Below the pieces are notes generated by a model. That model worked only from the letters and a program-made list of their open reading frames with translations. It did not search any database and was not told where the DNA came from. A DNA stretch of 64,000 bases from Brachycybe producta (taxonomy: Eukaryota; Arthropoda; Diplopoda; Playtdesmida; Andrognathidae), in the NCBI GenBank assembly GCA_036925085.1, contig JAUPFP010000045.1:744001-808000 (forward strand). Reading direction: 5' to 3'. Shown here in pieces: positions 3,401 to 62,145 of this stretch (position 1 is the stretch's first letter; every line of letters starts with the position of its first letter). The position numbers were made by a program, and so were the translations under genes.

Positions 3401-6400
3401 GAAGTGGACCAACGGAAGTGGATGGAATAAAGTTCTCTAAGGCAAGTTGGAACGTCCAGGTGAGCATGAAGGGTGAATCTTTTGTTGAGACAGATTAAAT
3501 GTTAAAGGTAACATATGCTTGTTATTGTAGATTTCGAATATTTTTATTTTACTGTCTATGGATGTCAATTGTCGTGTTGTAACTGGCAATACTTGGTTCT
3601 ATGATGACCGCAGGAACATCCAGATAAGACTGCATCACGATGAGTGAGGCTGTTGAACTGGCGGCTCCATTCGTAATGTCGCCGTTGGAAACTGTCATCG
3701 AGAATGTGTACGTGACACGATACTCTAAATCGGATGACTGGACAATGATCGATGCGCCGTTCGTTGATGTCGCCTCTAAACATTTGAAAATAACAAAAAT
3801 CAGGTTGTTTTAAAGTATAAAACGCTTCTTGAACTCCGATTATTCTGTCTTTCAGAAGGAAAACGAAGAGAAAGTAGAAAATGTTTTAGTAACTAGAAGA
3901 GTAGCTCAATCATTTTTATGTTGGTATCTTTCAATATAAGCTTTATATGTGGGTTTAAAAATAACACAACTTTAAATCTGTGTCAATAAAAAGTTTATTT
4001 TGAAAGATATTAGCATAAAAATTCAGTGATTGAGCTATCCTTCTACTTTCTACGATGCTATCAATGTTTTTTTTAAGTGTAAACGCCTTTCGAGAGTAAA
4101 ATTAAGAGAAACTTGAAAGTGTTTTAAAAACTAGAAGGGTGGCGCAATCACTTAAGGGTATTTTCATTTTGATATCTTTAAAAAAAAAGCTTTTTATGAG
4201 TTTTAAAATGAATACATTTTTAATTTTTGTATATAAAAAGTTTATTTTAAAAGATAATTAACACGAAAATACTATTAAGTGGTTCGGCTACCCATTCTAG
4301 TTTCTAACACACTTCAAATTTATCCTTACTTGTTCCTCTTCTGAAAAGCAGAATAAAACTGTTCATAAAACAATTTCATGCTGTTTCTGAAAAATGTTTA
4401 CCCGTTCATTTTAAACATTTTAAAATCATTGTTTAAACACCGCGCTAATTACTTAAAAGAGTAATAACACTTACTGTCCACGAGATCTTGAAGATTTTTG
4501 TTAATGGCCGTATCACCGGTAATGTTGGATGGCACATCGGTTGTTACCTTCCAAATGTATCTTGCTCTTCTGCTTTGTAAACCAGTTGATTGGTGTCCAT
4601 CGATAACGAAATCACCACATGGAGGCACTTGGTTCGGACCGACGAGAACGGCCACGGGTTGCTCGTCCGCCAAAGAGAACTCAACCGACTTTAATAAAAG
4701 AAAAAAAAAGACCTGTTTTACTGTGGTATGATAAAGTAGATTTTTCGGTCACTTTGTAATTTTACCAGTTTATAAGCTGAATCAGCATACATTTCACCGT
4801 CGTGGTAAATAGTTTTATCTTTGAAGTTCAAGATAACAGCTGTAAAAATGTTACATAGTATATAAAGTTAGCTTACGTAGTTAATATCAACAGGACCGAT
4901 TTTAGGCCGATCTCACTGAGCCTCCGAGTCATGAGGGGAACATGAGCGCGTTTATATTTGTTGCGGACCCATAGGCACTGCGTTTTCTGAAGAATAAAAA
5001 TTGAGTGACGGGACATGTAACGTTTTGAAACAAAGCTCATCAAATAAACAGTACGAGCTCGTATATACATAAATCGAAACGTAATATACTGTAGTTTCAG
5101 CAATTAGTAATTTATTTGTAATTCTCTTTATGCAATAAATGAAAGAAATTTTCATAATTATTTTTAATTTTCATCATATTCATTTGATGGAGAAAAATGT
5201 CAAACATCATACACCCGAAAAATTCCACAGTGCCGAGAGGCATCAACAGAGATAAACAATGCCGTTGTAAATAAAAGGTGTTTTTTTTTTTGCGTCTCTG
5301 CTGTGGGCCTCACTAAGATAGTTTAAAATCGAATCCGTAATTTTCTTAAACTGGCCCTGAATATTGAAAGTTTCTTCCAATCTTGTTCTTTACCGTCGTT
5401 ACTTGTCGTTGGTAACATGGTGGTGGTCGAGAATGTGTTAACATTGAATGTTGTTTCATTAGTGGTAGCATTCTGATCTACTGGAGATGATGGTTTAATA
5501 GTCGACACGACGTTACTTTGTGTGTCCAAAGTGACCATCAGTTGTTGTTTGGTTACCCAGATACAAGTAGCATTTTTACCGAGAGACGATGTCATACTCT
5601 CTTCAGTAAATATACTCGAACAATTGGTTAGATTCGATATAGCTACGTCACGATCGAAGAAAACGACCACACTGTCACCTAAAAGTGTCACAAGTAACAG
5701 AATTTGAATTTTAAAAATTACTCTTCAAGCAGCCAAGAAGACCGGTGACAGAGGGACAAAAGTGCAATTGCAGCATGTGAATTGCATTGTCAAAACCCGA
5801 AGATAGAAACCCAATAAAACGAGTGCAATGTGGTTCGGTGCAGCTGAAATAATGCATTGTCAAAAAACGAAGAGCCCAGAAATACATGTTTAATTCATGT
5901 ATAAAGTCAAAAAAAGTAACAACACAAATTTTACCTAATGTATGGTCGTATTTGATTTGTTACCTTCAGGTAGAGGAAGGAAATAGGTGATGTTTGGTGG
6001 TGAAGCGTAGAAAGTGATACTAAATGGACCTGCCACAGGTTGCTTTCGATCGAAAGATACGTTGACGTATGCTGACGTCGAGTGAAGTGGATACGGAAGG
6101 TTACACGTAGCTTTGTCTGCGCTCACGTTTTTCGATGTCACCACAACTGGAATCTTAAACTCTTAAATGACGAGAAAGTTTGTACAATTGGGAATGTAAT
6201 CGACAAATGTTAATTTTTTGAAAAGTAAGTTGGTTTGTTACCTCCTCCAAAAATGGTGCAAAATATTTTGTCAATCTTTTGAGTGTTTCTAGTTGTAAAA
6301 GTAACCTGCACTTCAGAGGCGTTTACTTTTGGAATTGTTACTGCTGATGGAGACATCGAGTCTACTGAAGCTGCCAAAGAAAACAAATCATACCATATGG

Positions 6401-9365
6401 TTTAATTAATTATTTCTAAATTAGACTTCAGACCACCGTAAGAGTCTTTTTTTAAGGTGGTTTTAAAGTGTAAACATCACTGGATCGAACTCTGCTTATT
6501 CTGTCTTTCGAGAGCAACGTTAGGAGAAAGTTGAAAGTGTTTTAGAAACTAGAATGGTAGTGCAGTCACTTAAGGGTATTTTCATGTGGATATCTTTCAA
6601 AATAAGATTTTTATGTGCTTTTAATGATTCGACTTTAAGCAAACGATATTTTTTTAATTTTTGTCTATAAAAAGTTTACTTTGAAATATATCAAAATGAA
6701 AATACTATTAAATGATTCGGCTACCCGTTCTAGTTTCTAACACAAATTCAATTTCTCCTTATGGTTGTTGCTTTTTTTGAAGCGTAGAATAACCAAAGTT
6801 GATTAAATTCCACATAAACATATTTAATTTAATACCCGCGTTTGAGTAGACAATGAAGGGCACTGAAGAGTTTGAATAATCAATTTTTTCTCCGTTTAAT
6901 AACGTAATTCCAACATGCAGCCTGTAAATTCCTTCTGGTGCCTTTATGTTACAGGTGATTTCTGTTCCGGAGATGTCTGCCGGAAACTTTTCTTCGTCTC
7001 TTCCGTCTGCTTGAACGTCTTCTCTGATGAGCAGACAAACAGAGTGATATTTGCTCTTCAGTGTGACTCCAACCACATTCACCTGTGGTCAAATACAACA
7101 GGTGATCGTCATCTTGATTAGTCAACTTTCTCGAAAGAGAAAAACAACAATTGAATCATTTACAACACTTACTTTTGTGAGTATGTCACTTGGTATCACG
7201 GTAGGATATGCACTTGCAATCATTGTACAAGTGTCGTTTTGCCCCGAACAAACGCCGCACATATCCTGTTCTGCCCTGAATTGAATGAATTTGAATGATT
7301 GAATTTCAGTTTGTATTATTACTAGCAACCCAGAGGGCCTGTATTGGCATGGAACCGTAACTAGGACACGGCAAGTGAGGCACCTGCCTCGGGCTCAAAT
7401 ATCAAGGGCTCTAGTTTAATTCATGTCTCAGGCGTAAAATAAGCTAGTTACGACTCTGCTATGGCATCAAGGACTATATAGTCCAATGTTTCCAAAATGG
7501 TATTTCGTAAAGAAAAGTAAGGGTTCTGCTAGAAAACTAATTAAATCGGACATAAAAAAATAATTTAACAAAATAGAAAATGTTAAACCCTTCTCATTAA
7601 AATTTTGTTGTCAGATTTATGTGATTTTTTAATATTAATAAACTGTGAATCTGATATCGTAATTATCATTTTAATTAATAATGCATACTAATTACTAATA
7701 TCCAAAAATGCTATATCCATACGAATAGCCATGTCTATTTTTTCTGTTATTTTTCTAGCTCCATACATGATATTGAGTAAGCTTTTATGTTAAAATACTA
7801 CTGAGATTCTGTAATATGGATTCCGTTGCCAAATTAAATTGGGCACCTCTATTCTAGTCCAAAAACATCAGAAAATTAGTGTTGCGCCAAATTACTGTTT
7901 GAATTTGAATGTTATGTATATTTGAATATTCAAAGTAATTAATCACAATTACTAATTATATCTGTGAAAAACGAATTAATTACAATTACTAAATTTAAAA
8001 AAAAGAAATTAATTAGGAATACGATTGTAAATTTTCTTTAAAAAAAACGTCAAAAACAAAAATTATAAAACTAAATTCAGAAAGTCAAAGCTTAAATGCA
8101 ACACCAGCTTAACGCGTGATCTAATGAAAAATAAGTTTCAAATTTCCATAAAAAGTTTAAAATTAAATATTTTGCCAATAAAATGTATGTTAACATATTC
8201 TCCAACTATTCTAGTTTCTAAGAAACATTTATATGTTCATCTTTATAAATTACTTAGCAAGTTTACAAAAATCTCACTTTGGACAAAGGCACGTTACAGG
8301 GTCTGGAATACAACGTCCACAAGGATTTAGAAGAGACGCCTTTTTGGTGGCAGTGTGTGGACCAACACATTGATTGCAGCTTTCATTCGATGCAGTGGCC
8401 ATTTGATTGACCGTTGCTACGAAAAGAAGAGACAAGAATAAATTAGCAAAAATGAGTTACTTTTTGTTCTTGTCCACAATTGCATTTATATATGAGCTGT
8501 TGTTTACCTGGAGCATAGCAGGTCCCAGTGCAGTCCAGGTAATGACTAGGACTCACATTATCGTTACTCGTTGTGCTCAATGCTGTCGTTGAGCGTAATT
8601 CTTGGATTGTCATGTTAGATTGATCTTCTTGACCAAGAATCTCATGTTCTGAAGTGACATTTGTTTGTTGAGAAGTGACATTCTTCTGTTGAGAAGTGAT
8701 ATTCTTCGTTGGTGGCGATGGAGTTACAGGCCCCAATACTTGTGCCACAGTCTGTTCCTTAGATTGGAGTATACAGACACCGCAACTGTCTGTAGTATAA
8801 TTGAGACTGGACGATTTGTGCAGTGGTCGTAAGTTACAAAGTTTTCTGCAGTCACGAGGATGTTTCTGAAATGAATCGTCACTTGCGAGTGTCGTTTCTG
8901 CTGTCGGAATCACTGTAAGGACGTTTCCATCTGTGAAGGAAACAAGTCTTGAAATGTCTTCATGGTATGCAAGTTAATAATTGGGACGATTGCAAGCTTG
9001 GTCGAGTGTTCGTCACTTACTTATGCACTCGCCACTACATTCATCCCAGTAAGAATTTCCATTGCATTTCCCAGCACAATCAGTGAATGCAAGACCACAT
9101 GTTCCAGCACAGTCAACGCCAAAGTCTGCAGAAAGACCGGTGGTTCCTTGAACGCAATAACCACATTTGTTGAGTGTTGCTCCCGGAAATCCTCTCAGTT
9201 CACAGTCTGTTACAACTTCAGAAAATATAAAACGTTTTAATTATTATTTAGCTTTCAAATATTTAATGTTTTAAAATTTCTTTTCTTTTTACCTGTTGAA
9301 GTGACTTGAGCAGAAATGTCACAATATAAAAGTCCAAAAAGAAGCACTGGTAATGTATACAACAT
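463..9365 (-). CDS. REJ-module extracellular protein, 5' 19 exons, C-terminus beyond left edge
   Basis: Exons in transcript order: 9365-9293, 9206-9021, 8930-8508, 8416-8278, 7275-7173, 7082-6836, 6370-6242, 6161-5964, 5678-5394, 4839-4766, 4688-4475, 3775-3553, 3478-3327, 3247-3006, 2928-2710, 1504-1351, 1277-1194, 861-713, 634-463. All junctions are GT-AG and every phase joins, giving 1155 codons before the edge. The start MLYTLPVLLFGLLYCDISA is a signal peptide. Then come a Cys-rich region, beta-sandwich (IPT-like) repeats and a REJ module, recognisable from GPNQVPPCGDFVIDG and its following Ig-like segments. REJ modules occur in sea urchin egg-jelly receptors and polycystin-1 relatives, usually ahead of a GPS site and membrane helices; those would lie to the left. 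Likely role (inference): cell-surface or matrix recognition. The ligand is unknown. Many N-x-S/T sites fit an extracellular location. Confidence 0.85.
931..1175. repeat. hAT-like palindromic element
   Basis: Starts cagagctgtaactagg and ends ctagttacggctctg, inverted repeats in the intron between REJ exons 17 and 18. It fills most of that 332-base intron. The GGCGAGTGAGGCAC interior resembles common hAT-type MITEs. A relative lies at 7350-7458. Confidence 0.7.
3802..4372. repeat. F1 foldback elements, two adjacent copies
   Basis: Family F1: termini TTAAGGTGGTTTTAAAG and complement, then CGAACTCTGATTATTCTGTC, a core GTTTTAGAAACTAGAAGGGT, AAAATAAACTTTTTAT, and the same in mirror order. Here two copies lie in the 3554-4474 region, in the REJ intron 3776-4474. 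Confidence 0.75.
5964..7082 (-). other. IPT/TIG-like beta-sandwich repeats of the REJ protein
   Basis: Exons 6-8 encode beta-rich stretches such as VNVVGVTLKSKYHSV, CNIKAPEGIYRLHVGI and CNLPYPLHSTSAYVNVSF, with a single Cys per unit followed by a Tyr/Val-rich strand. This resembles IPT/TIG repeats found upstream of REJ modules, but the match is by overall pattern, not by a decisive motif. Confidence 0.5.
6452..6808. repeat. F1 foldback in REJ intron 6
   Basis: Nearly complete copy with left TTAAGGTGGTTTTAAAGTG. It occupies most of intron 6371-6835 and ends about 28 bases from the exon 6 donor. Confidence 0.75.
7173..9206 (-). other. Cys-rich N-terminal block of the REJ protein
   Basis: Exons 2-5 encode repeated Cys-Gly-x-Cys motifs (CGYC, CGVC, CGRC, CGVCSGQNDTC) and DCAGTC/DCAGKC motifs, a pattern seen in several invertebrate extracellular proteins next to IPT and REJ modules. 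Between them, exon 3 carries a Ser/Thr/Asn/Gln-rich linker with three tandem 7-residue units (NITSQQK, NVTSQQT, NVTSEHE), each with an N-glycosylation sequon. I read the Cys motifs directly; the disulfide-rich fold is inferred. Confidence 0.75.
7350..7458. repeat. Short hAT-like element in a REJ intron
   Basis: Same termini as 931-1175 (ggaaccgtaactagg to ctagttacgactctg) but only about 110 bases. Flanks attggcat and tatggcat may be a decayed 8-base target duplication. Confidence 0.6.
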
Positions 9366-9468
9366 GGTATTTTCTTAAGGTGTTCCTGAGTGACAGTTAC
9401 GTTTTCATAACATCAATCTTTCTGTCCACTTCAAATAATCTGCAAGAAGAAGTTTTCTCAATAAATAA

Positions 9469-9867
9469 CATTGTTGGAAAGTAACTTGTTAAAAAGTAAT
9501 GAATTATTGTAATTAAATTACTTTGGAAAGTAATTACTTTTTATATTACTTTTTTGTGTTGACGTTTTCGGACTACTCGGCACTTGCTTTAACTATTTCT
9601 AATTATAGTCAATTAGACTTATTTGCATTTTAGATTAGACTTTTCATATTCAGTTTTATAATTATTAATTGTTGCTGTTGTTTTTGCATCTGATGATGTC
9701 ACACTCTTTTTCTATCATCTGGTTTATTGTAATTAAAAAAGTCATTGAAATACTTTTTACAAATGACTATTTGTAATTAACTTCTTTTTAAAATCTTGTA
9801 ATTGTCATTAATTAGTTTTTCAGTGATGTAATTAATTACTTTAAAAAGTAATATGGGCGCAACACTG
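9469..9867. repeat. hAT-like MITE 5' of the REJ gene
   Basis: Left ATTGTTGGAAAGTAACTTG, right complement of CAGTGTTGCGCCCATATTAC, both followed by AAAAAGTAATTAATTAC-type arms. It starts about 100 bases upstream of the REJ start codon. A decayed relative may span 7878-8106. Confidence 0.6.
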
Positions 9868-11302
9868 ATAACTGCAATAAAAAAGGCTAGTTATTATAGA
9901 ATTAAAATACATTGGAATTAGAAGTTGTTGGTTAACTCTAGCCTCTAACCATCTTTTTTTTTATTGCAAAAAGCATAATTTAGGGAAGAAATCACACACG
10001 AATATCTCACGGAATTTCACTTCGTAAGGAATTTAACAGAAGCGCCATATATCTTTTCAGTGCAAAGAACAATAGAAATATTCTGATTTTATTTTTCTAT
10101 TTCTGTTTTCTGGTGGTTCTTCAGTGTGCGTGATTTTTCAATAAATGATAAATTACGTTCACGTTTAAATTACTTTATTGTACAATTTAAATAAGAAACA
10201 CTTGTCATTCTAGATTAGTGACCACTTGCATCATTTATCAGTGATGTTGTGCTGTCTGCAATTACACATGAATGATATACAGTATATCTATAATTTTTAT
10301 TATTTTATATCAAAATTAAAGACCCATTATTAATTGGGGTTGTGTATGGTTGGAAGAAGTATATAATCTATATAAAAAAAAAGCAGAACATCCCAAAGAA
10401 CAGCTGTTTACTTGTTCTAGATTCCATTGTTTTTCTTTCCTAGTTACTGTAACATCCTAGACATATGTAACTATGACTCCACAGGTGACCCACTGACACG
10501 ATAACATGGATAAATTTCACCAAGACAACATATTATTACAATTATTAGCATGTTACTAAAAGTCTAAAGGAATATAGACACACAGGGATTTCATTCCTAG
10601 AACCAAGACCAGACTTCTAAAAAAATTTTACTATTAACAAATACCAATAAATATTTCAGATTACAAAAAAAAAATAAAACATTGAAAGGATCTGAACTTT
10701 CCTACAGTCGCACAATTCATTTTTTTTGGGCCTGAACTTCAGAGTTAGCATTTATTTCCAATGATGATTGTTGTAACAATTGTAGTATTTGAGCAGGTGT
10801 TTTTTTATAACTGACTCAATGTGAACCTCCCTTCATGCAATTGGGGCCCTCAATGTAGACAAGGTGCTTGAAAAAACAGCTGTTTCAGTCGAATTTCACT
10901 CTCTCTCACACACATGTTGAAGTGAGGTTTGCAATATCAAAGAAGGGGGGCAAAATGAAAATGGGGAGGAGGATGTCTACTCATAATCAACATCATATTA
11001 TGACGTCACTTTGGAAATTGAAAGAAAAACATGGACACTCAAAGACACGAGCATATGGCTAAGAGAGTTTTTTTTTCTATTGAAAATAAATTTGTCATTT
11101 AGGTTAGTGGTTCTCAACCTATTTTGTATGTCTATGTATTTTTTATGGTCATGGCACACTAAAAATTTCAATGGCTATGGCCACTTAAAATATGTTCACC
11201 TTATTAAGTCATATATTTTTTAAAAAAAAACTATATTTAGAAATTATTTTTGTGGCCCACTTTTAAGTATTTCTTGTGGTATAATTTCAAATTCTAAATT
11301 GC

Positions 11303-11876
11303 TTAAGGTGGCTGTATAGATATGTATTTTGTTTTTGTCTCTCCGGATGGCGCGCCTACGTGGCTATTATATTCTTAGAGGAGGTCTTCTCCTTCCACCT
11401 GCAGTTTTGAGAAAAATTGTATTTTTTTAAGGAAACATTTTGTAGGAGAAACATTGCGAAGAAATTCAAAGTGTTTTAGAAACTGGAATAGTTGGTGATA
11501 ATGTTAAAAGTTTTTTTCATGATGATATCTTTCAAAATAAACTTTTTATGAGAGTTTGAAAAAGGCGAAAATAGTTTTTTTTTCATGAAATGTCAATGGA
11601 AACCCTTAAAAACGAGGCATTTACAAACTGCTATAAAATGTTTATTTTTGAAGATATTGCCATGGAAAAAACTTTTAACAATCATTTACCATTCCAGTTT
11701 TGAAAACAATATGAATTTTTTCATAATATTTTTTTTAAAAAAAACCGTTTGGTGACATTTTTGCATCCAAATTTGACAGAAACATTTATGAAGCATAGCG
11801 CATTAGCCACGGCCAACTGTAGTGGCGCCATTCATAAAGACAAAAGCAAAATAAATATCTATTCAGCCATCTTGAG
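11303..11876. repeat. F2 foldback element
   Basis: Family F2: termini TTAAGGTGGCTG and ATAGATATTTATTTTG, a GGCGCCA-containing subterminal block, and a core (GTTTTAGAAACTGGAATAG, GTTGGTGATAATG) related to F1. Both arms present. Confidence 0.75.
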
Positions 11877-11884
11877 TTAAAACA

Positions 11885-12240
11885 ATATTAACATCCATAA
11901 ATTGCATATTTTTTTGGAAATTTGGATAAAATTTGCATAATTTAATTTATTTCTTTTAAAAACACTTTTTGGTCAGAAAAAAAATCTACAAAGAGTTTTT
12001 TTTAAATCGTTTTGATTTTGCATTGTCTGTTATTGCCTCTTGTGGTTGTCGCTATATGCTCGTAAATTGATATATAATTTTTTTATTTGCATATAAAACA
12101 ATTTTCTAATATATTTTGTATTTTATTTCCCATTTACATAAAACGCATAATTTTTTAATAACAATTGCACATTTTAAAACTTTTTAATGAAAAGTTTTCG
12201 TCTTAATTGATGACATTATCTAGATTGATTTATTGTTTTA
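11885..12240. repeat. TGCAT-rich repeat, second copy
   Basis: Parallels about 120-440 of the window in the same orientation: TTTGCATAATTTAATTT, AAAAAAAATCTACAAAGAG, TTTTGATTTTGCATTGTC. Starts immediately after an F2 element. Confidence 0.6.
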
Positions 12241-18141: not shown

Positions 18142-18539
18142 TTAAGGTGATTTTAAAGTGTAAACGCCTCTCGAACTCTTGAATATTCTGTCTTTCAGTT
18201 GCGAAAGAAATAAAACCATTAAGTGTTTTAGAAACTAGAAGAGTCGCGCATTCACTTAAGGATATTTTCTTGTTTATATTTTTCAAAATAAGTTTTTTTT
18301 ATGGCGGTTTTAAAAAACAAACTATTTTAAGCTTAGTAGATAATATTTTCTAATTTATTTATTTTTTTGCTATAAAAAGTTTATTTTGAAAGATATATCC
18401 AAACAAAAAATGCTTTTAAGTGATTGAGCTAAGCTTCTTGTTTATAAAACACATTTTAGTTTCTCTTGATATTTTTGTTTGCTTCTGAAATGGAGAATAA
18501 TGAAGATTTCGAAAATCAGCTGTTCATAAACCATCTTAA
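18142..18539. repeat. F1 foldback, full length
   Basis: From TTAAGGTGATTTTAAAGTG to AACCATCTTAA, both arms and the core present; about 1.4 kb upstream of RFX4 exon 1. Confidence 0.8.
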
Positions 18540-19905: not shown

Positions 19906-46784
<26,879 letters not shown>

Positions 46785-46788
<4 letters not shown>

Positions 46789-47272
46789 GGTGATATTAAA
46801 AAGTAAACGACCCACCCCCCCCCTCAAACTCTGGTCATTCTGTCCTTCAGAGGCAACATTAAGAGATACTAGAAAGTGTTTTGAATACTAGAAAAGTAAC
46901 TCAGTCACTTAAGGGTATTTTCATGTTGATATCTTTTAAAATAAAATTTTTATCTCAGTTTGAAAATCATCCATATTTAAGCAATCGATTATTTTTTTTA
47001 ATTTTTGTCTACAAAAAGTTTATTTTGAAAAATATCAACTTGAAAATACTATTAAGTGATTCACCAACCCAGTCTAGTTTTTAGCATACTTTCAAATTTT
47101 TCTAACGGGCTATTTAAGCCAAAGTGACACTTAAACAAAGCTAAACTTAAAAAACTCGCTATAGACTTATTATAGAGTTTTGCTTGAATATTAGGGTTAG
47201 TTTGCTCTTCTGAAACGCAGAATAACAAAGTATTTGAAAATTAGCTGTTAATAAACTATCTTAATTAATTTA
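46785..47272. repeat. F1 foldback starting at the RFX4 stop codon
   Basis: The left end TTAAGGTGATATTAAAAAG begins one base before the TAA stop (46786-46788). The right half is interrupted near 47100-47200 by another inverted-repeat arm. Confidence 0.7.
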
Positions 47273-49066: not shown

Positions 49067-49090
49067 TATTTAATGGAATTTCTATTAACA

Positions 49091-49412
49091 TTTTAAAGGC
49101 TGTTTTATGAGTAGTAAGTCAAACGCTCCTTCAACTCTAGCTATTCAGTGTTTCAGGAGGAGAAACTTGAACGAGTTTTAGAAACTAGAAGAGCAGCTCA
49201 ATCTCTTAAAATGAAGCTTTTTTTATGTCAGTTTAAAAAGTTTATTTCGAAATACTGTATATCAACGTGAAAATACTAATTAAGCGATTCAGCCAATGTT
49301 TTAGTTTCTATTCAGTTTCTCTTTAATGTTGTTGCTTGCTCTTATAAGAGCTTGTGCTTATAAGCACAGAATAAACTGAGTTCCCAAATCAGCTTTTCAT
49401 AAAATAGTTTAA
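49091..49412. repeat. F1 foldback, deleted centre
   Basis: GTTTTAGAAACTAGAAGAGC core in the left arm; the central spacer is short. Confidence 0.65.
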
Positions 49413-50009
49413 TTTTTTATGCAGTTTATTAGCCGTAGTAGGTAGATACAATTCAAAGGTAGAAAATTGCATTTTTTTATAAAAAAAAAATACCTTTTGA
49501 GGACATACATAGTGACAAAGAAAGGGATGGGAGCAGGCACAGTTGCCAGGAGACGGCCATCTTGTTAGCCGAACAAGCAAATTAAAAAGTAAGTACATTA
49601 ATTTAAGTGGAAACATTTATTTTGTTGAAACCAAATTAGAAAATAAACCAAAAATTTTGTGATTCCGTGGAATATCTCTAGTTAGAGACAAGTCTATTAA
49701 AAGGTTATGAATTTATTATGAGAAAACTATTTATGAGAATTGTCTTTTTGAATCTAGATGTCCTTCAAGTCACATTCATTAAAGAATTTTAACTCTTTTT
49801 TTATGGATGAATTGACTGAAATGCAAATTACAATCACTTTAGAATTTAAATGCATTTCGAATAATGACCTTTAGTTTATTCTTAAAGCCACATTTATAAT
49901 TAACCTTTAAATTTAAATGAAGTTACCCTGGCAATGCGCAAAAGAAATAATTTCATTTTCTAGTTTTAATGTTAATTATATGAATTACATATACACATTT
50001 ATTGCATTT

Positions 50010-50345
50010 GAGGAATTTTTAAAGTCTAAATGCTTCTCGAGCTCTTATTATTCTGTCTTTGAAGTGAAAAATGAATGTGTTTTAAAAACTAGACGGGTAG
50101 CTTAATCACTTAATGGTGATTCTCATGTTGATATCTTTCAAAATAAGCTTTTTATGTTAGTTTCAAAATGGCCCAACTTTAAGCAGATGATATTTTTTTT
50201 TTAATTATTCGTGTCTAAAAAGTTTATTTTAAACGATATCAGCATAAAAAATACTCATAAGCTACCCTTCTAGTTTTAAAGTCACTGTCTAGTTTTCTTA
50301 ATTTTGCTTCTGAAGGACAGAATAATTAACAGTTTTATTATCAGT
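50010..50345. repeat. F1 foldback
   Basis: TTTTTAAAGTCTAAATGCTT to GGACAGAATAATTAACAG; both arms present. Confidence 0.7.
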
Positions 50346-51206
50346 CATGCAAGTTATATTATATTTTGCATATATTACTAACCAATTAAATACTTTGCAT
50401 TTTTGCACAGCCATTTTTTTTTTTGCTATATTCAAACTTTAGCCTCTAAATATAGAACGGCTTTTTTTAAACATACAAATACTTTAAGTTTTCTATTTTT
50501 TGTCCGTATTCGATTAAACCCAATTGAATTTTATTTATTTTAAAAAAAATAATACAAAAAAAGAAGAAACGGAATAATTAGTCTTGATGCAAGTTGAAAA
50601 GCTCTATATATATTTATATGTATAAAAAAAGCAAGATGGCTGCCATACTTATTCCCTCCAAAAGTTAATTCTCAAATTATTCCGTTTCCATGATTGGAAC
50701 TGGGAAACGTTCTTTCACACGTGACTAATAACAAAAGTAATTCGATTAGTCGCTACTTGATATATAGAATGTGTGAGGCCTCGTTGCCTGGGAATGTGCA
50801 AACAATAACTTTTTTTTTTTTTTTCCCTATCTTTTTTTTTTACCATTGGAAAAATAGGTGATGCATATGAATAATGAAAAAATATATGATTTTTCGACAT
50901 TTGTTAATAACCTTATCACAAAAAAATAAAATTAAGATGAAATTTGAAAGCAGTTCAGACAATTATTTTTTAATTTATCTGCACGGATAATCTCATCATT
51001 ATTATATTCTAAATTTGTCTGGCTCTAAACTTACAACTTTTTGATTATTTTTTTTTTGTTGGAAAATTGACATTCTACAGTTTTTGCTGCAAACAAAGTA
51101 GAAAACCAATCATTATACTGATATATCAATTACGGAATTTCTTGGTAAATTTGCACAGTTCCTGTAACGTTTTATTCATTTTACAAAATGCCTGGTAAAT
51201 TGGGAA

Positions 51207-52500: not shown

Positions 52501-52547
52501 TGATTTTCTTCAATGTCGGGCTCCCTTTAATGTCGTTTCTTTTGTTA

Positions 52548-52657: not shown

Positions 52658-52828
52658 GTACGTTATTTTTTCTTTCGTTTCTTTTTATCATAATCTGTGT
52701 TTTATTTGCGTATTTTCGTAGCATCTATATAAAATGTGTACAAATATGCGTAGCGTAATAATCTTAGAAGATATTCGACTTATTAATTCGTTATTAAGTT
52801 CGTTTCGTTATCGTTATATTTCAGTACA

Positions 52829-54901
52829 ATGGGGGTGTACAAATATATGCAAGAATTGAGCCATAAGAAGCAGTCTGAAGTGTTTCGTTTTCTTCATCGT
52901 GTTCGAGTATGGCAATATCGTCAATTATCGAGTGTTCATCGAGCTCCGAGGCCAACTAGACCGGACAAAGCGCGTCGTTTGGGCTACAGAGCCAAACAAG
53001 GTAGAAAAAAAAGACCACAAAATGAAAAAAAAAAAACGTGGTACATATTGACATATAACGTTTAACACGAAAAAAATGGATCGGAGTATTTATTCGTGTT
53101 AAAAGACAGGATTTTTATGCTATTTTGTGAGTCCGAATCGAAAATATTTCGTCTTATCCGATTTCTCGTGTTAAACGATTTTCACCTGTATATCATACAG
53201 TAGTCAATAAACACCCTTTTTTGTTTTTACACATTACAGTTGTAAGGAGATTGAAATTAATGGTGTTTTTTGTGCAGATTTCTAACGTGTTGCAGAAAAA
53301 AAGGACGAAAACTTAATTTTATGAAAGAATTTTTTTTAACATTTGTTGGAGACTAGAAGAGTAAACGAAAATGCAATGATATCTTTGAGATTGAACTTTT
53401 TCATCGACACAATTTTGTAGTTTTGTTAAGTGCATAACCTCTCGAACTCTGATTGAGCTGTGTTTCGAGAGCAGAATTTTGAGAAACTTAAGTGTTTTAG
53501 AAACTAGAAGGGTAGAGTATTTTCATGTTGATAACTTTTTAAATAAACTTATGTGAGATTTGAAAATGGCACAGCCATAAAAAGTTTATTTTAAAAGATA
53601 TCTATATGAAAATACTAGTAAGTGATTCAGTTACCATTCTAGTTTCTAACATATTTAATTTCGAAAACATATTCTCGTTTTCTTTTAGTCTGTTGTAAAT
53701 GTTACGTTTCGTTTACTCTTCCAATTTTGATTAGATCTTGAAATTTTTTTTTTAAGTTTCACCAAAAAGGCTTGTTTTCGTCCGTTTTTCTGCATCGTGT
53801 TCTTAAAGAAATCGATTGAATCGTCAAAATGATGATAAATTTACCTAGTTACATTTTTGTGAACGTTATCTTCTTCCTTTGGGTGCGTCCAGACTACGAC
53901 AGAACACTGCTCGTGAACAGTGGTGACGGTTTCCCGAACGTTTTTTCTGTAACAAATTTTGTAAGTGGTTTTGTTTGAGCCCAATCCACCAGTTGTCAGT
54001 TTTTGGCCGTCACATCAAAGGATGTTTGCGTTCGGCCAGGAGTAGTTTGGACGTCTAGGCGAATATTTCTCCGAACATTTAGTCATTGGTGGTTCTGAAA
54101 GCAGCCGAGGTTAAAACTGGGAAAACGTTGAGAACATGTTCTGTGCAAGTCTGGACACTCCGACCACAGCAAGCAGAACAACGAACATATTCTGTTCTAG
54201 TCAGGATGCACCCTTAGATGTTTGATTTCAAAGTTCTGTCAATACATTTCGACCCTTCTAACTAGTTTCTTCTATTGAGATAGATTTTTTGTCATTTGTC
54301 GTTTCCGCCCTCCTGCTTCTTAGGTTACGTCATTTACCGGACTCGTGTTCGTCGTGGTTCTCGTAAACGTATCTGTCACAAGGGACAGACGTACGGAAAG
54401 CCGAAGAATCATGGTGTGAACCAGTTGAAATATGCTCGAAGTTTACAAGCTCTAGCCGAGGTGCGATTATTTACTTTTATTTAAGTCGTTTCTAATTGAA
54501 ATTTTGTTATTCAGTAATCGTGTTCTCGAATCATAAAGTCATATTTATTGAGTTTTAATTGTCGAGAGATTTCTCGTGTTCGCTCTCAATTCTAGGATCG
54601 TGTCGGCCGTCGTTGTAAGTCGCTCCGTGTGCTAAACTCTTATTGGGTTGCTCAGGACTCGAGTTACAAGTTTTTCGAGGTGATCCTCGTCGATCCTTTC
54701 CATAAGGTAATTCGTCGCGATCCTGCCATTCAATGGATCTGCAGAGCCACGATGAAGAGGCGAGAATGTCGTGGTCTCACTTCGGCATCGAAGAAGTCTC
54801 GAGGTTTGGGTAAGGGACACAGGTATTCGCAGACCAAAGGTGGATCGCGTCATCGTTGCTGGAAACGTAGAAACACTCTACAGTTGCACAGGAAACGTTA
54901 A
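52829..54901 (+). CDS. RPL15: 60S ribosomal protein L15 (eL15)
   Basis: Coding exons 52829-53000, 54324-54460 and 54596-54901 (205 codons with stop; 204 aa, the same length as the human protein). The sequence begins [18 protein letters not shown] and ends [12 protein letters not shown]; the diagnostic [15 protein letters not shown] and KSRGLGKGH segments are intact. A noncoding first exon of about 48 bases probably runs from the pyrimidine tract at 52610 to a donor at 52657/52658, with the acceptor at 52824. The first coding intron (1.3 kb) contains three different foldback repeats; the second is 135 bases. The protein is a core component of the large ribosomal subunit. No frame damage is seen. 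Confidence 0.98.
53055..53192. repeat. Pogo-like element in RPL15 intron
   Basis: ACGTTTAACACGAAAAAAAT to TCTCGTGTTAAACGATTTTC, starting about 55 bases after the donor. Confidence 0.7.
53425..53690. repeat. F1 foldback in RPL15 intron
   Basis: CTCTCGAACTCTGATTGAGC left end, GTTTTAGAAACTAGAAGGGT core, mirror to TTCTAGTTTCTAACATATTT. Confidence 0.72.
53881..54213. repeat. Foldback with GGGTGCGTCCAGACTA ends in RPL15 intron
   Basis: Right end TAGTCAGGATGCACCC. GC-richer than its surroundings (GTTCGGCCAGG, CCGAACAT). No other copy in the window. Confidence 0.65.
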
Positions 54902-54938
54902 AATATTTGAAATTGTCTTACGTGTAATAATACGTAGA

Positions 54939-54944
54939 AATAAA
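54939..54944 (+). terminator. RPL15: RPL15 polyadenylation signal
   Basis: AATAAA 38 bases after the stop codon, giving a very short 3' UTR, usual for ribosomal protein genes. Confidence 0.75.
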
Positions 54945-55279
54945 CCCCAAAAAAAAATGTTTGAAAAGGTTTTTTTTATTTGAAATATTTGTGTTAACAA
55001 AAAAATGTGTTTTCTATTAGAATGAACTAAAATTCTCATTACAGTGTGAAACATTTCTTCTGTAGAACTTTCAGATCTCATTACAGAAAGAAAAAAATCC
55101 TTAATTTGTGAGAATCACACTTTACGATGTCGCTGCTTATGATCTATCATTTTATGATTGATATATTATTCTGCAGGGTTATTAAAATAAAAGCGAAACG
55201 ACTGAAATTGCAAACAAAAAACTGGTCTCGTCTTGCTGCCGTCCTAGTAACAGTCACAAGAGCAATTTGAATACTGTAA

Positions 55280-55427
55280 AGGTTGCCCCACACTAGACCG
55301 GCTCGGAGCCGGAAACATGCGGATCGCTGTCTTCTTATTAGACCGGGCCTAGTGTCGGTTTACCTATTCGTTTCTTTGGTTTTTATTCCATTCTTTTCCG
55401 ATTCGGGCCAGTCTAGTGTGGGACAAA
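55280..55427. repeat. Foldback between RPL15 and FANCB
   Basis: CCCCACACTAGACCG left, GGCCAGTCTAGTGTGGG right; about 145 bases. The rest of 54945-56114 holds no recognised gene; an F11 fragment is at 55940-55985. Confidence 0.65.
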
Positions 55428-56114
55428 ATATAAAGTCCTCAACTTGAGCAATTCCAGAGGTTTATGCGGAAGTTAAGATTACAGAACCAATTGATGTGGA
55501 AGCATTGCAATTGAGGTGTTTTTTTGAAAACTTCATAAGTCTTATATCTTTTTACATATGAAAGGATTCGGTTTTTGTGTTTCCTGAAAGAATGTGACTC
55601 ACTGTAATTGCAAAGTTTAAAAAAAAGCTCAATTGTAAAGGGAATTGCTGCAACCACGTATGTACAAAACCGTATAAGTTGGTGATGTACTGTATTGAAA
55701 AAGAAAATATGGTGTTCTTGAGCAGACAATATGCTTCTTTGCTCATTTAAATATGGCAGCTATGTATACTACAAAGGATGATATCACAAGGTCTACCGTT
55801 GAAAACAATGACCAGGGATCAGTGCAAGCTACTGATATGACCTTGATCAGTGATCAACACTGATAGGCGGTGGTTGCCACATGTAGTGGGGCTTAACGAC
55901 TAAACGCCCCTAGTGCCAAAAAGAAACGTAGCAGTGGCTTGGGGAGGGTTTTTAAGTTTCACTTTGGCTTAAAAATAACGTTTTAGAATATGGTTGCTAA
56001 ACAAATAAGGGAATTGGCTTATGAATAGACTGTCTGTTATGGTATTCCGCTGTAAATAAGCTAATTGTGCCATTGAATTCTTAAAACGGAAAAATAAACA
56101 TAACATTTTTATCC

Positions 56115-56120
56115 TTTATT
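56115..56120 (-). terminator. FANCB: FANCB polyadenylation signal
   Basis: AATAAA on the minus strand, about 30 bases beyond the stop codon. Confidence 0.65.
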
Positions 56121-56150
56121 GAAAACAAAACTAAATATACAAAAATAAAT

Positions 56151-59100
56151 TCAGGAATTTTTTGTTGTTGATTCTGAAATGATCAATTTATCTGTTTTCG
56201 TTTCTAGTAAAAGCAGATCTTTTCTGAAACGAATGTAGTCGGAAACATTGAATGTTTGAAATTCTTTTGAACGGCTGTTTTGATTTGTTTGTTCTTCGTA
56301 GGTTTTTCTAACCTCGCTCACATCTCGTAAGGGTCGCAAATCACTTCGTTCGTTATCTGGGGTGTCTTTTTCGAAGAAGTCTTTAATGAAGTTAATTTCT
56401 TGCGAGAGACTAGTGTTAGCACTTGAGCGTGGCACTTCGTTGTCGGAATGTGGTAATATGACGATATCCTCTGGAAGAACGTTGTATAGATAATGAACCA
56501 AAGTAAAGAATTGGCTCTGGTTTCTGTAAAACAAAAAAGTTTGAAATTTTCTGATTAACAATTATTTAATTTTCTAAAATTTCCGATAAAACACTTTAAT
56601 TTTAAATTGTACTTAGTATATGTCATCAAATGAGCTTTGGATTTGTTCTCGATATGAGTAACATTAAAAAAGACTCCACTTAAGACATCTCTTTCTGATT
56701 TATTCCAATAAAAGACAGAAAGATGTTGAGCATAACCAAAGCCACAGGATGATTTCTTTATGGTTTCCTCTAGACAAAACATATCCGTGTGTTTCGATAC
56801 TAAAGTTACTTCTGTGGCTTCCGTTGTTGCTCGTACTGCTGCAAAATCGCAAAGTAGTTCTGAAATATCTGAATAAAGAATAACATTTTGAAAATTATGG
56901 AAACATTTCTTTAAAAAAACAAAATACACACCGTTTTCTTCTTGAAAGTTTGTACGAAATTTATCTTTTAGCAAAGTGTCGACACTTAGCACAATTGACG
57001 GACACTTAACGTAACTATTTCGTATGTTACTGTTTACTTGTTGTTCGAAAGTAACAACGGTATTTATCGACAGTTCCGATTCGTGTTTCAGAAATCCAAT
57101 ATCGAGAGAAGTCGTTAAAATAACTCGTTCGAAACTCTCCAAAATATTCTCGGTTTCCGATGGAAGATCGTCGTCTTCACTTTTGAATTTCTTACGCGGA
57201 GGTTTTTTCATTGTGGTCTGTATCGACGATGAATATGATTTCATACGGAAGAGATTTGTTGTGTGAGTTAATTCACGTTCTTTAGAAGATAAAACGAAAT
57301 GCAAACCCCAGATAGGCCTGCAAAGCAAATTTTATAATTTGAATAATTGCTCTGGAAGCAGAGATCAAAGGATTTTTTTCTATCTGCATATTCCTTTATT
57401 CTTCATATTTATATGAAATTAATGTCAAACACTGCTGAATAAATCGATGAATAACAGGAACGTGTGGATAGAAAAACACTTAACTGAATTTCTTAGAATT
57501 TTAAGATTAAGATACCCTTTTGTAATATTAGTGATTTCGATTCCGATAATCCATTTGTCGTTGATTATACGTTGCCAGGGTCTTCCGACGTGAAGCGGTT
57601 CGTAGCATTCGTTATCGACCAATGTTTGGCTATCGAGAATGGACACGTTTTCGAGTCTGCCGTCCGTTTCACTGTTTAGCAGGTTGAATAAGGGAGTCTG
57701 TTAAATACACCAATTAGAAAAAATATTTCATCATAGAAAACTTTTATTTCAGTTATCCATGTAAGAGCCCGAGACACTACAGTGCGTGCCCATGCTGTAT
57801 GATGACGTCATAAACGTAATGTTTATAAAACATGGTCTTGATTTTAACTACAAATCTCTTTTCAAACTGTATTTCGAACAATAATCGTAGCTGCATGCGC
57901 GTTTAAGAAGCGCTTGCAGCTTCGATTGGTTGCAATATTTAAAGAGGTTTTTAAATGGTTTTGAATTATGCTAATTTGCTCGACTCATGTTAAAGTTCAT
58001 TGACCTCAAAAAGGTCCATTTTGCTAACAACCTTTCGGTTCTTTAGAAATATCTTTCAGCTTTAAGAAAAATCTAATGTATTCCCTAACATGTTCTTCGG
58101 ATATTAAGGTAATTTCATGACGTTTCGAACTGCCGTATGATTGCTAGAGCCATTTTGAGCAACTTGGGAGCCAGAAAACTGACCAGGTCTCGTAGGCACG
58201 TACAACTCTGGAGTGTCTTTAGGATCTTAACTATAACATAAATAGACCATTTGTTCTGATCTTCTAGCCTCGTGTCCGATTGTGGCTTCATGTAACGTCT
58301 GGCAAACATTGTTCACGACTCGATCGAGATGTTCCAGATGCTTTTCATTTTGCTTCACAGCTTCTCGACCAGCCTAAAATTAGAAGTAAAGTTTTTTTTT
58401 AAGAATTTGAAGTTTATTGGTAACGAAGTAAGAGAAACAAAAAGTTACGATGGATCTCGTTTCGAGAGCTTTCTTCGCTGCAACTAAACTCGGTTCGATA
58501 CAAACTTCCTCGGTGGCGTTCTGTAAACAAATAACAATAATATGCTTTTTAAGAGAAGAAACGGGCGCAACCTCGAAGTAACTTATTTTTGCCTTTGATG
58601 TTAAGTTATCACTGTTTAAATCTGTCATTTTGATGATTCGACATTCTTCTAGATCTTTATCCGGAACTCGATTGACCATCAAGAGAATTGTCGAAGGTCC
58701 GAAACGAAAGAAATTACCCACGTAGACGTCACTTACATCGTCGTATGTCTTTACTACCTGAGTTGACGTTAAGTATAACCGATATATATATCTTTGGTTT
58801 GTTTTAATTTCAATTGTCGCGAATGCAGATTTATTTCTTATTTTGAAAAATAACAAAAAAGATGAAATTTATTTGATTTGAATATCAGATTTTCGAATAT
58901 TAATAATATAAAATAAATAATATAATTTAAAATAAATAATATAATTTAAAATAAAAATAAAATTTTAAAAAATAATAATATAATTTAAAATAAACAATAA
59001 TATAATTTAAAATAAATAACAATGTAATTATTCAGTAGTTTCAGAAGAGATTTAATAGGATTTCCAATTTTTGAGATATTTCAAAATAAACTTTTTAAAA

Positions 59101-60470
59101 AATATCGTCGGCCATTTTGAAACTCACATAAATAGTTTATTTTGAAAGATATCGCACATTAAAATATCCTTAAATGATTGAGCTACCCTTCTAGTTTCTA
59201 GCACACTTTGAATAAAAAAATCTTTCTGTTTGATTTAATTTATAATTATTATTTAATTAAAACAATTTCGATCTTAAAGCCTTGTTTTTCTATTGGGGTT
59301 GAAATTTCAACCATTTGATTATTTCAACTGGTGAAAAATAGAGCACACGTGGCTCCTACCTATTCACTATCGTAAGCAGGAGCCACGTTTGTTCTATTTT
59401 TCACCAGTTTTCTTACAAATTTTCACGCCAATGGAAATAAGGCATAAATCTGTGAAAACTAAAAAAAAAAGGTGTTTAATCTGTGCCTCAAAACGGTTCA
59501 AATTGATTACAGATGCCTTCGATCGAGACTGAATGATGACGTAACGTTGATCAGATCTACTTCTGCACGTGTAATGAACTATCATTCTATCAGCTGTAAA
59601 ACCGATATCGGTATTAATATTGGTGACGGAACCGTTGTAATCGAATTCGACAAGTTCACCAACACCGTTGGAAACAGAACACAGAAACCGTTTTTGACGA
59701 TAATCGTCAACGAAAGAAACCGATTGTGCACGAGTTAAGTATTTCTCATGAGCCGATTGTTTTAATGTAGTGTTTGATTCAACATTAATCGAATTCTCGT
59801 ATGGTTTTAATAGAATCTTCGTTAAATAACTTGACGATTGAGTTCGTACGATTAAAAATAAATTTACGATAAAAGTCGTTGTCGTCGTCGTCGATGAAAT
59901 CTGTTCGTATTCGCTTTTCAAACATAAAAGAGACGGTGAAACGACATCGGGTAACATGATTTTCATCGTTACATAACGACTATTCGTTGTCAGTAAGTAA
60001 TTAATGTATAGAAATTGATTTTTAAACCAGAAAATAATCGGTCCATCGGTTAATTTGACGTTAAGATTTAAAGCGTAAGTGATTTTCATTGGAACTCCCC
60101 AATAAACAAGTTCGAAACGATCGCCGTTATCGATCGATAAAACTGTGACCAGCAATAATTTTAATTTATCTAATTGATTATATTTTTTTCCTATTAATAT
60201 TACTGGAATTTGTAATTGAGATTCACCGATTGTCACTAAATTACAATCCAAAATTACCGCCTTTTGTTGGTATCTGAACTGAGCAGCGTTTTCGACGCCG
60301 TTTTCAATCTTTTTCAGCCGCTTTTCAGTCTCGTTCACTACGTAAACATTACAATTTAACATATAATACTTAGAAATATTATTGTAAATTATCTCAAATT
60401 GCAACAGTTTGTTGGTAAACGTCAAAACGTGTTTTTTATCTGAATATTCAGACGACGATACAGACGCCAT
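56151..60470 (-). CDS. FANCB: Fanconi anaemia core-complex protein FANCB
   Basis: Exons: 60470-59511 (canonical donor; homology would favour an end at 59481), 58757-58572, 58520-58449, 58373-58248, 57697-57516, 57317-56932, 56868-56613, 56523-56151. Total is 846 aa, or 856 with the longer first exon; human FANCB is 859. Aligned landmarks in the right order: LTDGPIIFWFKNQFLYI (human LNGPLILWRHVKAFFFI), VGNFFRFGPSTILLMVN with IIKMTDLN (human FIGSGTEQVLLLF with FKITDLG), PWQRIINDKWIIGIEI (human IWYRVIDDSLVVGVKT), and the late LVHYLYNVLPEDIVIL. Identity is low throughout, so the call rests on order, spacing and total length. Known role: with FANCL and FAAP100 it forms the catalytic module of the core complex that monoubiquitinates FANCD2 during crosslink repair. 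A 63-base intron (56931-56869) is in frame and free of stops. Confidence 0.85.
58900..59035. repeat. AT-rich minisatellite in FANCB intron 1
   Basis: Irregular tandem units of AATAATATAATTTAAAATA. Confidence 0.8.
59060..59270. repeat. F1 right half in FANCB intron 1
   Basis: TTTTGAAAGATATCGCACAT, GAGCTACCCTTCTAGTTTCT. Confidence 0.65.
59328..59407. repeat. 80-base hairpin in FANCB intron 1
   Basis: CTGGTGAAAAATAGAGCACA at the left and the near-perfect complement ending TCTATTTTTCACCAG at the right; roughly 32-base arms with a few mismatches. Confidence 0.75.
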
Positions 60471-60522
60471 TATTATACATAAGACAGCACATTCTGTTTA
60501 TTCATCGTTTTGACTAGCAACG

Positions 60523-60561
60523 TGACGTCAAGTCTATGTATAATCTATAGGCGTGACGTCA
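60523..60561 (-). promoter_or_regulatory. FANCB: Pair of CRE palindromes upstream of FANCB
   Basis: Two perfect TGACGTCA sites at 60523-60530 and 60554-60561, 31 bases apart start to start, 53-91 bases upstream of the FANCB start codon. CREB/ATF proteins bind this palindrome; its activity here is inferred. Confidence 0.6.
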
Positions 60562-60894
60562 TACTGCTGGATAAGTCGATGATGAAAGGAAAGTGCAAAG
60601 CGACATGGTAGACCTATTTAGAAAGGTAAAGCAACTCCAAATTAGAAAAATAAAACGCCAAAAGTGAGTGAAGAATCGTCTGCTTTTCAAAGCTAGAAGG
60701 AAGACACGTTTTATGTATTGTGCATTGAATCGTATCGTAACTGAATAGTTAGCGCCATCTATTGGCGACACTCAGTTTAGACACTTTTCTAACCTTGTGA
60801 AAAGCTGTAAGTTGAGTTACCTCTGTATAAGTGTCTTTGTGACAAGAATAGTCATGGCCTCCTATAAGGAGTTATATTATAGTTCAATGGAGAA

Positions 60895-61230
60895 ATATCG
60901 ATACAGATATCGAACTTTGATTATTCTGTCTTTCAGGTGCAAAATTAAAAACTAGAAGGGTGGCTCAATCACTTAAATGTATTTTCATGTTAATATCTTT
61001 TAAAATAAACTTTTTATTGTAGTTTGTAAATTAACCAACGATATTTTTTTAATTTTTGTCCATAAAATTTTAATTTTAAAATAAATCTAATATGAAAATA
61101 CTATTATGTAAATACAACTACGATTCTAGTTTTTTAAGACTTAATTTCTCCTTATTGTTGCTCCTAAAGTGAAAGAAAACAAGAATTTGAAGAAATGTGT
61201 ATTTCACAAAACAACTTATTAAAGTTTGTT
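60895..61230. repeat. F1 foldback between FANCB and the POLR1D-type gene
   Basis: ATCGAACTTTGATTATTCTG left; AAAACTAGAAGGGTGGCTCA core; mirror decays near 61200. Confidence 0.68.
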
Positions 61231-61434
61231 TTAAAAGTCAAATTTTTTTTTGCAATACTAGCAATTATTGACGGATAACGTAATAAATGTGCTAAAGAAG
61301 CCGATTTTTAAAGTTATTTTGCGGCATTCAATCCTTCTATTTCAGCTTTTGCAATGATAAAAACAATTAAAAGATAACAATTCATTTTATTCGTGATAAT
61401 TTAATAAATATAATACATAATGAATGTTAAGTTT

Positions 61435-61942
61435 TTAATTTGTTGTTTGTTTCTCATCATTATTCCTTAGTTTCTTATGGCCGTTCTTTCGTTCGGATAG
61501 GATTCTTTCATTAGAAGAGACATTTGTATTTTTTGTCTCGTGATTAGATTCTTTGCTTTTTCTCTTATGCCTGGACAGTTGCATCTCGTCAGTGAATGTT
61601 CTTTTGCATTGCTCTTTATGTCGACCAGATGTTGTTTGTAGAATTGTGTTACGAAGAAACCGCTTGTTCGCTTTCGGAATAGGACACTTCATCCTTTAGC
61701 ACAATTAATCAATATTAATTATTAGACCATGATAGATTTCAATTTATAATGTTATTACCATCCTTGTGGTCCCAATTGGTCAGCTCGTATTGATGCTCTT
61801 TGAGTTTCCTTTAAAATTTCCTCTCTAGCGAGCCTAAAAATTTATAAACAAGTGTGCAATAGGAATTAAGGAATAGGATAATTTGTTGAACTGCATTTTT
61901 GATTAAATAAAATGACCTTTCTAATTCCTCTTTTTCGGACAT
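61435..61942 (-). CDS. POLR1D isoform-2-type small protein
   Basis: Exons 61942-61917, 61833-61759 and 61693-61435, with GT-AG junctions and compatible phases; 119 aa (the human isoform-2 protein is 122). The start MSEKEELERLAREEILKET parallels human MEEDQELERKAIEELLKEA; then LGPQGWMKCPIPKANKRFL parallels MGPMGWMKCPLASTNKRFL, followed by a Lys/Arg/Ser/Glu/Asn-rich disordered tail. In human this protein shares only its first exon with RPAC2, the subunit of RNA polymerases I and III; its own function is not established. No RPAC2 domain is encoded between here and the FANCB gene or in the introns. An acceptor at 61964/61963 and a strong donor (AA, then GTAAGT) at 62319 suggest a noncoding first exon further upstream. 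Confidence 0.85.
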
Positions 61943-62024
61943 GTACGTTATTGAAAATGTTTCTAAATAAAAAAAATATATATTAATAAACATCAATTGA
62001 CGTTAGATTCAATGAGAACATGGA

Positions 62025-62145
62025 TTCAGCTACCCTTCTAGTTTCTAACACACTTTCAATTTCTCTCACATGTTTTTTTTTCCTAAAACGTATATTAACC
62101 AAAGTTCAAAAAAAAATAATCAGCTGTTAATAAAACATCTTAACG
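62025..62145. repeat. F1 right half in the POLR1D-type 5' intron
   Basis: AGCTACCCTTCTAGTTTCTA to AATAAAACATCTTAA; the left arm is absent. Confidence 0.65.

What the first reader, a model, noticed from the sequence alone, without database searches (positions are those of the whole stretch)
3802..62145. One long-palindrome family (F1) present about 20 times in 64 kb
Copies share TTAAGGTGG termini, a CGAACTCTGATTATTCTG block and a GTTTTAGAAACTAGAA core, in mirror order. They occur in introns of REJ, RFX4, RPL15 and FANCB and between genes, at different stages of decay, so amplification was repeated. TTAA at both ends suggests a TTAA target as in piggyBac-type elements, but no transposase is present here.
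Basis: partly seen in the sequence, partly recalled or inferred. Interest (0 to 1): 0.72.

Follow-up and report, generated by a model that had tools for sequence, protein, structure and literature searches.

The report
Ancient hairpin-shaped mobile element family
The window holds about two dozen worn copies of one short, hairpin-forming piece of jumping DNA that probably needed another element's enzyme to move and that appears to be common across this genome; it is a family of a familiar kind, and probably not of the piggyBac type first suggested.

Summary
F1 is a palindromic (foldback) MITE of about 385 bp with no coding sequence: arms of about 130 bp, a spacer of about 55 bp and a different tip at each end. 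The window has 26 merged matches (3 belong to a sister family, F2). Twenty 10-kb stretches elsewhere have 46, covering 5.7%; shuffles have none. Scaled up, that is tens of thousands of copies and fragments.

One is TTAA-GGTGGTTTTAAAGTGTAAACG, the other TTAA-GATGGTTTATGAACAGCTG. Readable ends of spacer-oriented copies always keep this order (left A 23:0, right B 13:0).

TTAA looks like the target: T at -4 precedes at least 91% of exact F2 tips in C1-C16, and two joined-flank matches look like empty sites (places only).

piggyBac is not supported: five of nine piggyBac loci gave an end pair, all pyrimidine-first. TTAA plus purine tips fits Kolobok, but no coding element with these tips was found. 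F2 shares F1's inner module under different outer sequence. The kind is ordinary, the abundance notable. No repeat library could be searched, so whether the family is catalogued is unknown.

The parts
3802..4356 (+). Two adjoining F1 copies (3802-4076 and 4085-4356), outer ends decayed
   Evidence: nhmmer profile; sequence read
6452..6826 (+). F1 copy; A-end TTAAGGTGG at 6452, right end decayed (limit approximate)
   Evidence: fold z -9.3 for 6452-6806
18142..18539 (+). Full-length F1 copy, 398 bp, A-end left, B-end right, TTAA at both ends
20484..20872 (-). F1 copy, 389 bp, TTAAGGTGGTTT at 20872 (tip scored 'unclear'), B-end at 20484
22836..23412 (-). Two adjoining F1 copies, outer A-end TTAAGGTGG at 23412
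24349..24652 (+). F1 copy, ends decayed
31026..31371 (-). F1 copy, B-end readable
32282..32650 (-). F1 copy, 369 bp, A-end at 32650 (TTAAAGTGG), B-end at 32282 (TTAT in place of TTAA)
38003..38380 (+). Full-length F1 copy; its joined flanks match the continuous stretch C7:7748555-7748656 (candidate empty site, letters not read)
42140..42468 (+). F1 copy
45700..46083 (+). F1 copy, ends decayed (limits approximate)
46785..47104 (+). F1 copy, A-end TTAAGGTGA at 46785
49121..49400 (+). F1 copy
50008..50390 (+). F1 copy, ends decayed (limits approximate)
53337..53661 (+). F1 copy inside the RPL15 intron
60864..61219 (+). F1 copy, ends decayed (limits approximate)
62022..62143 (-). F1 fragment with B-end TTAAGATGTTTTATTAACAGCTG at 62143
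1561..1753 (.). F1 fragment; other fragments at 8096-8290, 30554-30649, 33522-33604, 43671-43824, 59050-59212
11303..11742 (+). F2 copy, tip TTAAGGTGGCTG at 11303, far end not placed
26870..27240 (-). Short F2 copy (371 bp), TTAA at both ends, tip TTAAGGTGGCTGAATAGATAT at 27240
39530..40049 (+). F2 copy, 520 bp, tips TTAAGGTGGCTG and TTAACGTGGCTG

Best explanation
F1 is an old family of non-autonomous foldback MITEs. Each unit is a near-palindrome of about 385 bp without coding sequence that was cut out and pasted into TTAA sites by a transposase supplied by another element. Shown here: dispersed copies, the palindrome, two fixed unlike tips, a TTAA beside the tips, and a sister family F2 with the same first bases (GGTGG) and a related inner module. 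Inferred: movement in trans by cut-and-paste; a helper that reads the short purine-rich tip (GRTGGTTT in F1, GGTGGCTG in F2) next to TTAA; an inner inverted repeat that arose by inverted duplication inside an element with unlike ends and is now shared with F2. The helper is more likely Kolobok-like than a pyrimidine-tipped piggyBac.
For: 26 elements or fragments in the window, 46 in 200 kb elsewhere, 0 in shuffles. Tips at up to 3 mismatches genome-wide, against the reversed control: A 369 vs 0, B 741 vs 0, F2 3114 vs 0. Tip order is fixed relative to the spacer: of 50 near-complete copies 17 had an unclear spacer; in the other 33 the left end was A in 23, B in 0, unclear in 10, and the right end B in 13, A in 0, unclear in 20. 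Copies with TTAA at both ends. TTAA rather than only TA: in C1-C16, 10 exact F2 tips have a non-T at -4 against at least 100 with T; 35% T would be expected. Joined flanks of two copies match continuous stretches across the junction (C7 77%, C23 75%). Consensus arms agree at 115 of 132 positions; the F1 consensus matches the F2 inner module at 96 of 126 and 88 of 116.
Against: No coding element with these tips was found; a pattern for F2 tips followed by non-F2 bases gave 9 places, none paired and none near a listed PF20700 or piggyBac match. The candidate empty sites are known by coordinates only, with net gaps of 10 and 5 bases, so the TTAA there was not read; the other nine joins sent gave no spanning match among the 40 candidates scored of 365. 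A palindromic TTAA that belongs to the element cannot be fully told from a target duplication without reading an empty site. The spacer consensus used to orient copies came from an alignment oriented by a profile that includes tip A, so the test is not fully independent for the left end; tip B was not in that profile.
Confidence: 0.8

Rival explanations
1. F1 and F2 are MITEs of Kolobok-superfamily transposons specifically: TTAA target, purine-purine tips, helper with THAP and DDE domains.
For: Kolobok is described as TTAA-targeting with an RR terminal sequence, and frog T2-MITEs as TTAA plus AGGRR (PMC6004289, passages). F1 tips are GG and GA, the F2 tip GG. The genome has 53 matches to PF20700, and a Kolobok-like stretch typed from recall hits PF20700 at E 3.6e-6, 26.6 bits against a cut-off of 26.5.
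Against: The recalled stretch found nothing in this genome (no positive control, so weak). In four PF20700 loci no end pair like F1 was found: none at all in L033-L035, two AT-rich pairs of other sequence in L036; their true ends were not reached. Frog tips in that paper start AG, not GG. The THAP search did not complete.
Confidence: 0.5
2. F1 is a MITE of a piggyBac element.
For: TTAA target; 93 piggyBac domain matches in this genome. One fetched locus, L032, has a GGTGG-type tip (TTAAGGTGGCTTC at 4803), but about 760 bases outside that piggyBac's own end pair.
Against: Nine piggyBac loci fetched; five gave a TTAA-bounded end pair around the gene (TTAACCCTTT, TTAACCCATT, TTAACCCTTTCAG, TTAATCTCTG, TTAACCTTTT), all pyrimidine-first. 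The end-pair search had no shuffled control, and four loci gave no pair.
Confidence: 0.12
3. The palindromes are host hairpin RNA genes or regulatory elements kept by selection, not worn transposon copies.
For: Strong folding of the one copy tested (z -9.3).
Against: No Rfam match at gathering score in the window; the copies are widely diverged (K2P mean 0.31 over 49) and very numerous by extrapolation.
Confidence: 0.04

Closest known systems
T2-MITE (Xmix and relatives) of Xenopus, thought to be Kolobok-linked (PMC6004289, passages seen)
   Same: MITEs with a TTAA target and purine-first tips, prevalent and long-lived.
   Different: T2 tips are AGGRR; F1 tips are GGTGG and GATGG, with a long internal palindrome. 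No coding partner was linked here.
piggyBac-type MITEs (recalled)
   Same: TTAA target.
   Different: The five piggyBac copies of this genome with a readable end pair have pyrimidine-first tips; F1 and F2 have GG or GA.
Foldback elements in general (recalled)
   Same: Long inverted repeats filling most of the unit, strong hairpin.
   Different: In F1 the outer 25 or so bases are not part of the inverted repeat: the two tips differ beyond about 8 bases.

Membership tests
MITE / foldback non-autonomous DNA transposon | Short, non-coding, repeated, with inverted repeats | tested here: met
   About 385 bp, too short for a transposase; consensus arms agree at 115 of 132; dispersed copies
MITE / foldback non-autonomous DNA transposon | Defined ends flanked by a target duplication | tested here: met
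   TTAA at both ends of better-kept copies; T at -4 in at least 100 of 110 exact F2 tips in C1-C16; two candidate empty sites, letters not read
MITE / foldback non-autonomous DNA transposon | Coding partner with the same ends | tested here: inconclusive
piggyBac | TTAA target | tested here: met
   as above
piggyBac | Pyrimidine (CCY) tips next to TTAA (definition recalled) | tested here: not met
   F1 GG/GA, F2 GG against CC or TC in the 5 of 9 piggyBac loci that gave an end pair
Kolobok | TTAA target and RR tips | tested here: met
   GG and GA tips beside TTAA; definition from PMC6004289
Kolobok | Transposase with DDE, THAP and H2CH motifs between the same tips | tested here: inconclusive
   PF20700 matches exist but element ends were not reached; THAP search unanswered

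The most novel reading that the evidence does not exclude
F1 and F2 show that a self-complementary core of about 130 bases per arm was traded between transposons with different outer ends, so that the core, not the tips, is the unit that spread; the tips only had to satisfy a TTAA-GRTGG helper, possibly of a TTAA group distinct from both piggyBac and Kolobok.
Probability: 0.12. Interest if true: 0.5.

Novelty: new member of a known kind. Interest (0 to 1): 0.3.

Why it matters
One MITE group covering 5.7% of the sampled stretches and 11.8% of the window is a large share of a genome of this size, and at least one copy sits in a ribosomal protein gene's intron. The fixed unlike tips and the module shared with F2 give markers for tracing how foldback elements form and exchange parts. 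Otherwise it is an ordinary class of repeat.

Tried and rejected
piggyBac as helper: disfavoured on tip sequence in the five loci with an end pair. A TA-only target: disfavoured by the T at -4. Two equal TTAAGGTGG ends: rejected. A coding F2 element by pattern (F2 tip followed by non-F2 bases): 9 places, no opposite-strand pair within 15 kb, none near a listed PF20700 or piggyBac match (compared by eye). Recalled Kolobok stretch: no match, no positive control. Ends of PF20700 elements: not resolved. Empty sites inside the sequence already fetched: the spanning matches belong to joins with poorly placed ends and to F1 itself, and one search gave none. Pairing among the first 100 listed A tips (of 369) and B tips (of 741): one A-B pair in opposite orientation spanning 335 bp, two same-strand A-A pairs, one B-B pair 11 kb apart; too few to weigh. 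Paper searches were seen as listings with abstract starts, plus passages of PMC6004289; none of the listed items describes this family, but the lists were capped, TTAAGGTGG alone occurs in 147 papers of which ten were listed, and no repeat library such as Repbase or Dfam could be searched. The host species was not identified: the COX1 search did not complete.

Full report
Setting. The window is G000:C45:744001-808000 of a 295.3-Mb, 442-contig genome with no name; the window is 31% G+C. The genome was searched by the tools, not read whole; about 299 kb of it were fetched.

Observation. The quoted core has 39 matches at up to 3 mismatches (shuffle mean 3.6) and the quoted block 11 (mean 0.04). 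A profile iterated from the copy at 6452 finds 26 merged elements or fragments in the window (7,559 bases, 11.8%). In 20 stretches of 10 kb, which I placed at round positions on 20 of the larger contigs, it finds 46 (11,377 bases, 5.7%), with none in 5 of the 20. Five dinucleotide shuffles of all this give 0. Scaled by hand to 295 Mb, 46 per 200 kb is about 68,000 elements and fragments; the spread between stretches allows roughly 41,000-95,000. The stretches are not a true random sample, and the profile also picks up F2 through the shared module. A DNA search with one copy saw 6303 candidates genome-wide, of which it scored 40.

Anatomy. Forty-nine near-complete copies give a consensus of 392 columns including some flank; K2P to it is 0.15-0.52, mean 0.31, and six of the eight highest values are F2 copies caught in the set. 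The arms of the consensus agree at 115 of 132 aligned positions. The copy at 6452-6806 folds at -111 kcal/mol against a mean of -66.7 for 100 shuffles, z -9.3. The better-kept copies with both ends run from 369 to 408 bp; the fuzzy end search as a whole gave 292 to 485, plus one nonsensical value, because many ends are decayed.

The two ends differ. I oriented copies by the spacer, then scored each end against tip A (GGTGGTTTTAAAGTGTAAACGCCTC) and tip B (GATGGTTTATGAACAGCTGATTTT). Of 50 near-complete copies, 17 had an unclear spacer and were dropped. In the other 33 the left end was A in 23, B in 0, unclear in 10; the right end was B in 13, A in 0, unclear in 20. The spacer consensus came from an alignment oriented by a profile that includes tip A but not tip B, so the left-end result is not wholly independent. 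Genome-wide at up to 3 mismatches, A-end plus block has 369 matches and B-end plus block 741, both with 0 in the reversed control.

Sister family F2. Three of the window copies (11303, 26870-27240, 39530-40049) carry another tip, TTAAGGTGGCTGAATAGATATTTATTTTGTTTT. It has 3114 genome-wide matches at up to 3 mismatches, control 0; the listing stopped after 100 exact ones, in C16. The F1 consensus matches the inner module of F2 at 96 of 126 (39530 copy) and 88 of 116 (26870-27240 copy) positions. F2 tips are better preserved: at least 100 exact of 3114, against 4 of 369 and 1 of 741 for the longer F1 patterns. I read this as F2 being younger.

Target. TTAA stands directly outside GGTGG or GATGG. 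If only TA were required, the base before TAA should be T in about 35% of cases (T content of the window). Among exact F2 tips in C1-C16 there are at least 100 with T and 10 with another base (21 in the whole genome). A search with the joined flanks of 11 copies (365 candidates, 40 scored) gave two matches that run across a junction: C7:7748555-7748656 for the copy at 38003 (query 1525-1636, TTAA at 1567-1570, 77% identity) and C23:1261484-1261592 for the copy in L003 (query 3-116, TTAA at 91-94, 75%). Both hold a net gap (10 and 5 bases). Most other non-self matches fall on a repeat in the left flank of the L008 copy and do not reach its junction. The letters could not be fetched, so I call these candidate empty sites.

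Helper. piggyBac domains are present (93 matches, 63 of them on C1). Nine loci were fetched. Five have a TTAA-bounded end pair around the gene (11 to 14 of the first 14 or 16 bases alike; no shuffled control), starting CCC (L029, L030, L031), TCT (L032) and CCT (L041); none starts GG or GA, and four gave no pair. L032 also holds a GGTGG-type tip, about 760 bases outside its piggyBac. Kolobok is described as TTAA with RR tips, and frog T2-MITEs as TTAA with AGGRR (PMC6004289, passages); F1 and F2 fit RR. That this links PF20700 to Kolobok is my inference. In four PF20700 loci I found no end pair like F1; L036 holds F1 copies of its own near the gene, which I take for chance. The element ends were not reached on at least one side. 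A search for F2 tips followed by non-F2 bases gave 9 places, unpaired. The coding partner therefore remains unknown; an old one may be lost.

Host genes. RPL15 is in the window (52829-53002, then 54323-54898 with an intron inside, by comparison with a recalled human sequence), and the F1 copy at 53337-53661 lies in its intron.

Verdict. F1 is a real, old, very abundant foldback MITE family with a TTAA target and two fixed unlike tips, grouped with F2 by tip and inner module. By inference it moved like other trans-mobilised MITEs. Membership in piggyBac is not supported; membership in Kolobok is possible and untested at the decisive point, the transposase between these tips.

Noticed in passing
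G000 contig C1 (22.2 Mb), mostly 5.5-18.4 Mb: Transposase domain matches crowd on this contig: 63 of 93 piggyBac and 31 of 53 PF20700, though C1 is 7.5% of the genome; one gene can give several matches. It may be a low-recombination or sex-linked region.
   Followed up: no
G000:C1:6141124, C1:12714159, C1:13384735, C26:525118: Four piggyBac matches with the same score and an open frame of 620 aa: probably young copies.
   Followed up: partly
L033 and L034 (G000:C107, C1): PF20700 transposase frames; the longer one (967 aa) has a C-terminal stretch that looks like a YqaJ-type nuclease (by eye; that frame was not scanned with profiles).
   Followed up: partly
window 25076-25144 and 46323-46404; L003 around 1410-1500: Another repeat (TTTCAACTTGAACC); in L003 the flanks of the F1 copy pair with each other, so F1 seems to have landed in a second palindromic repeat.
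   Followed up: partly
L012:6998, L013:1529, L017:3360 and 3758: A separate repeat containing TTAAGGTGCACATT; the bases before its TTAA are shared too, so it does not look like an F1 tip.
   Followed up: no
window 25707-25834: Long AT dinucleotide run that dominates a plain inverted-repeat search.
   Followed up: no
L032:4803: A third tip, TTAAGGTGGCTTCATACAGTAGATATTCCTG, perhaps another family of the same group.
   Followed up: no
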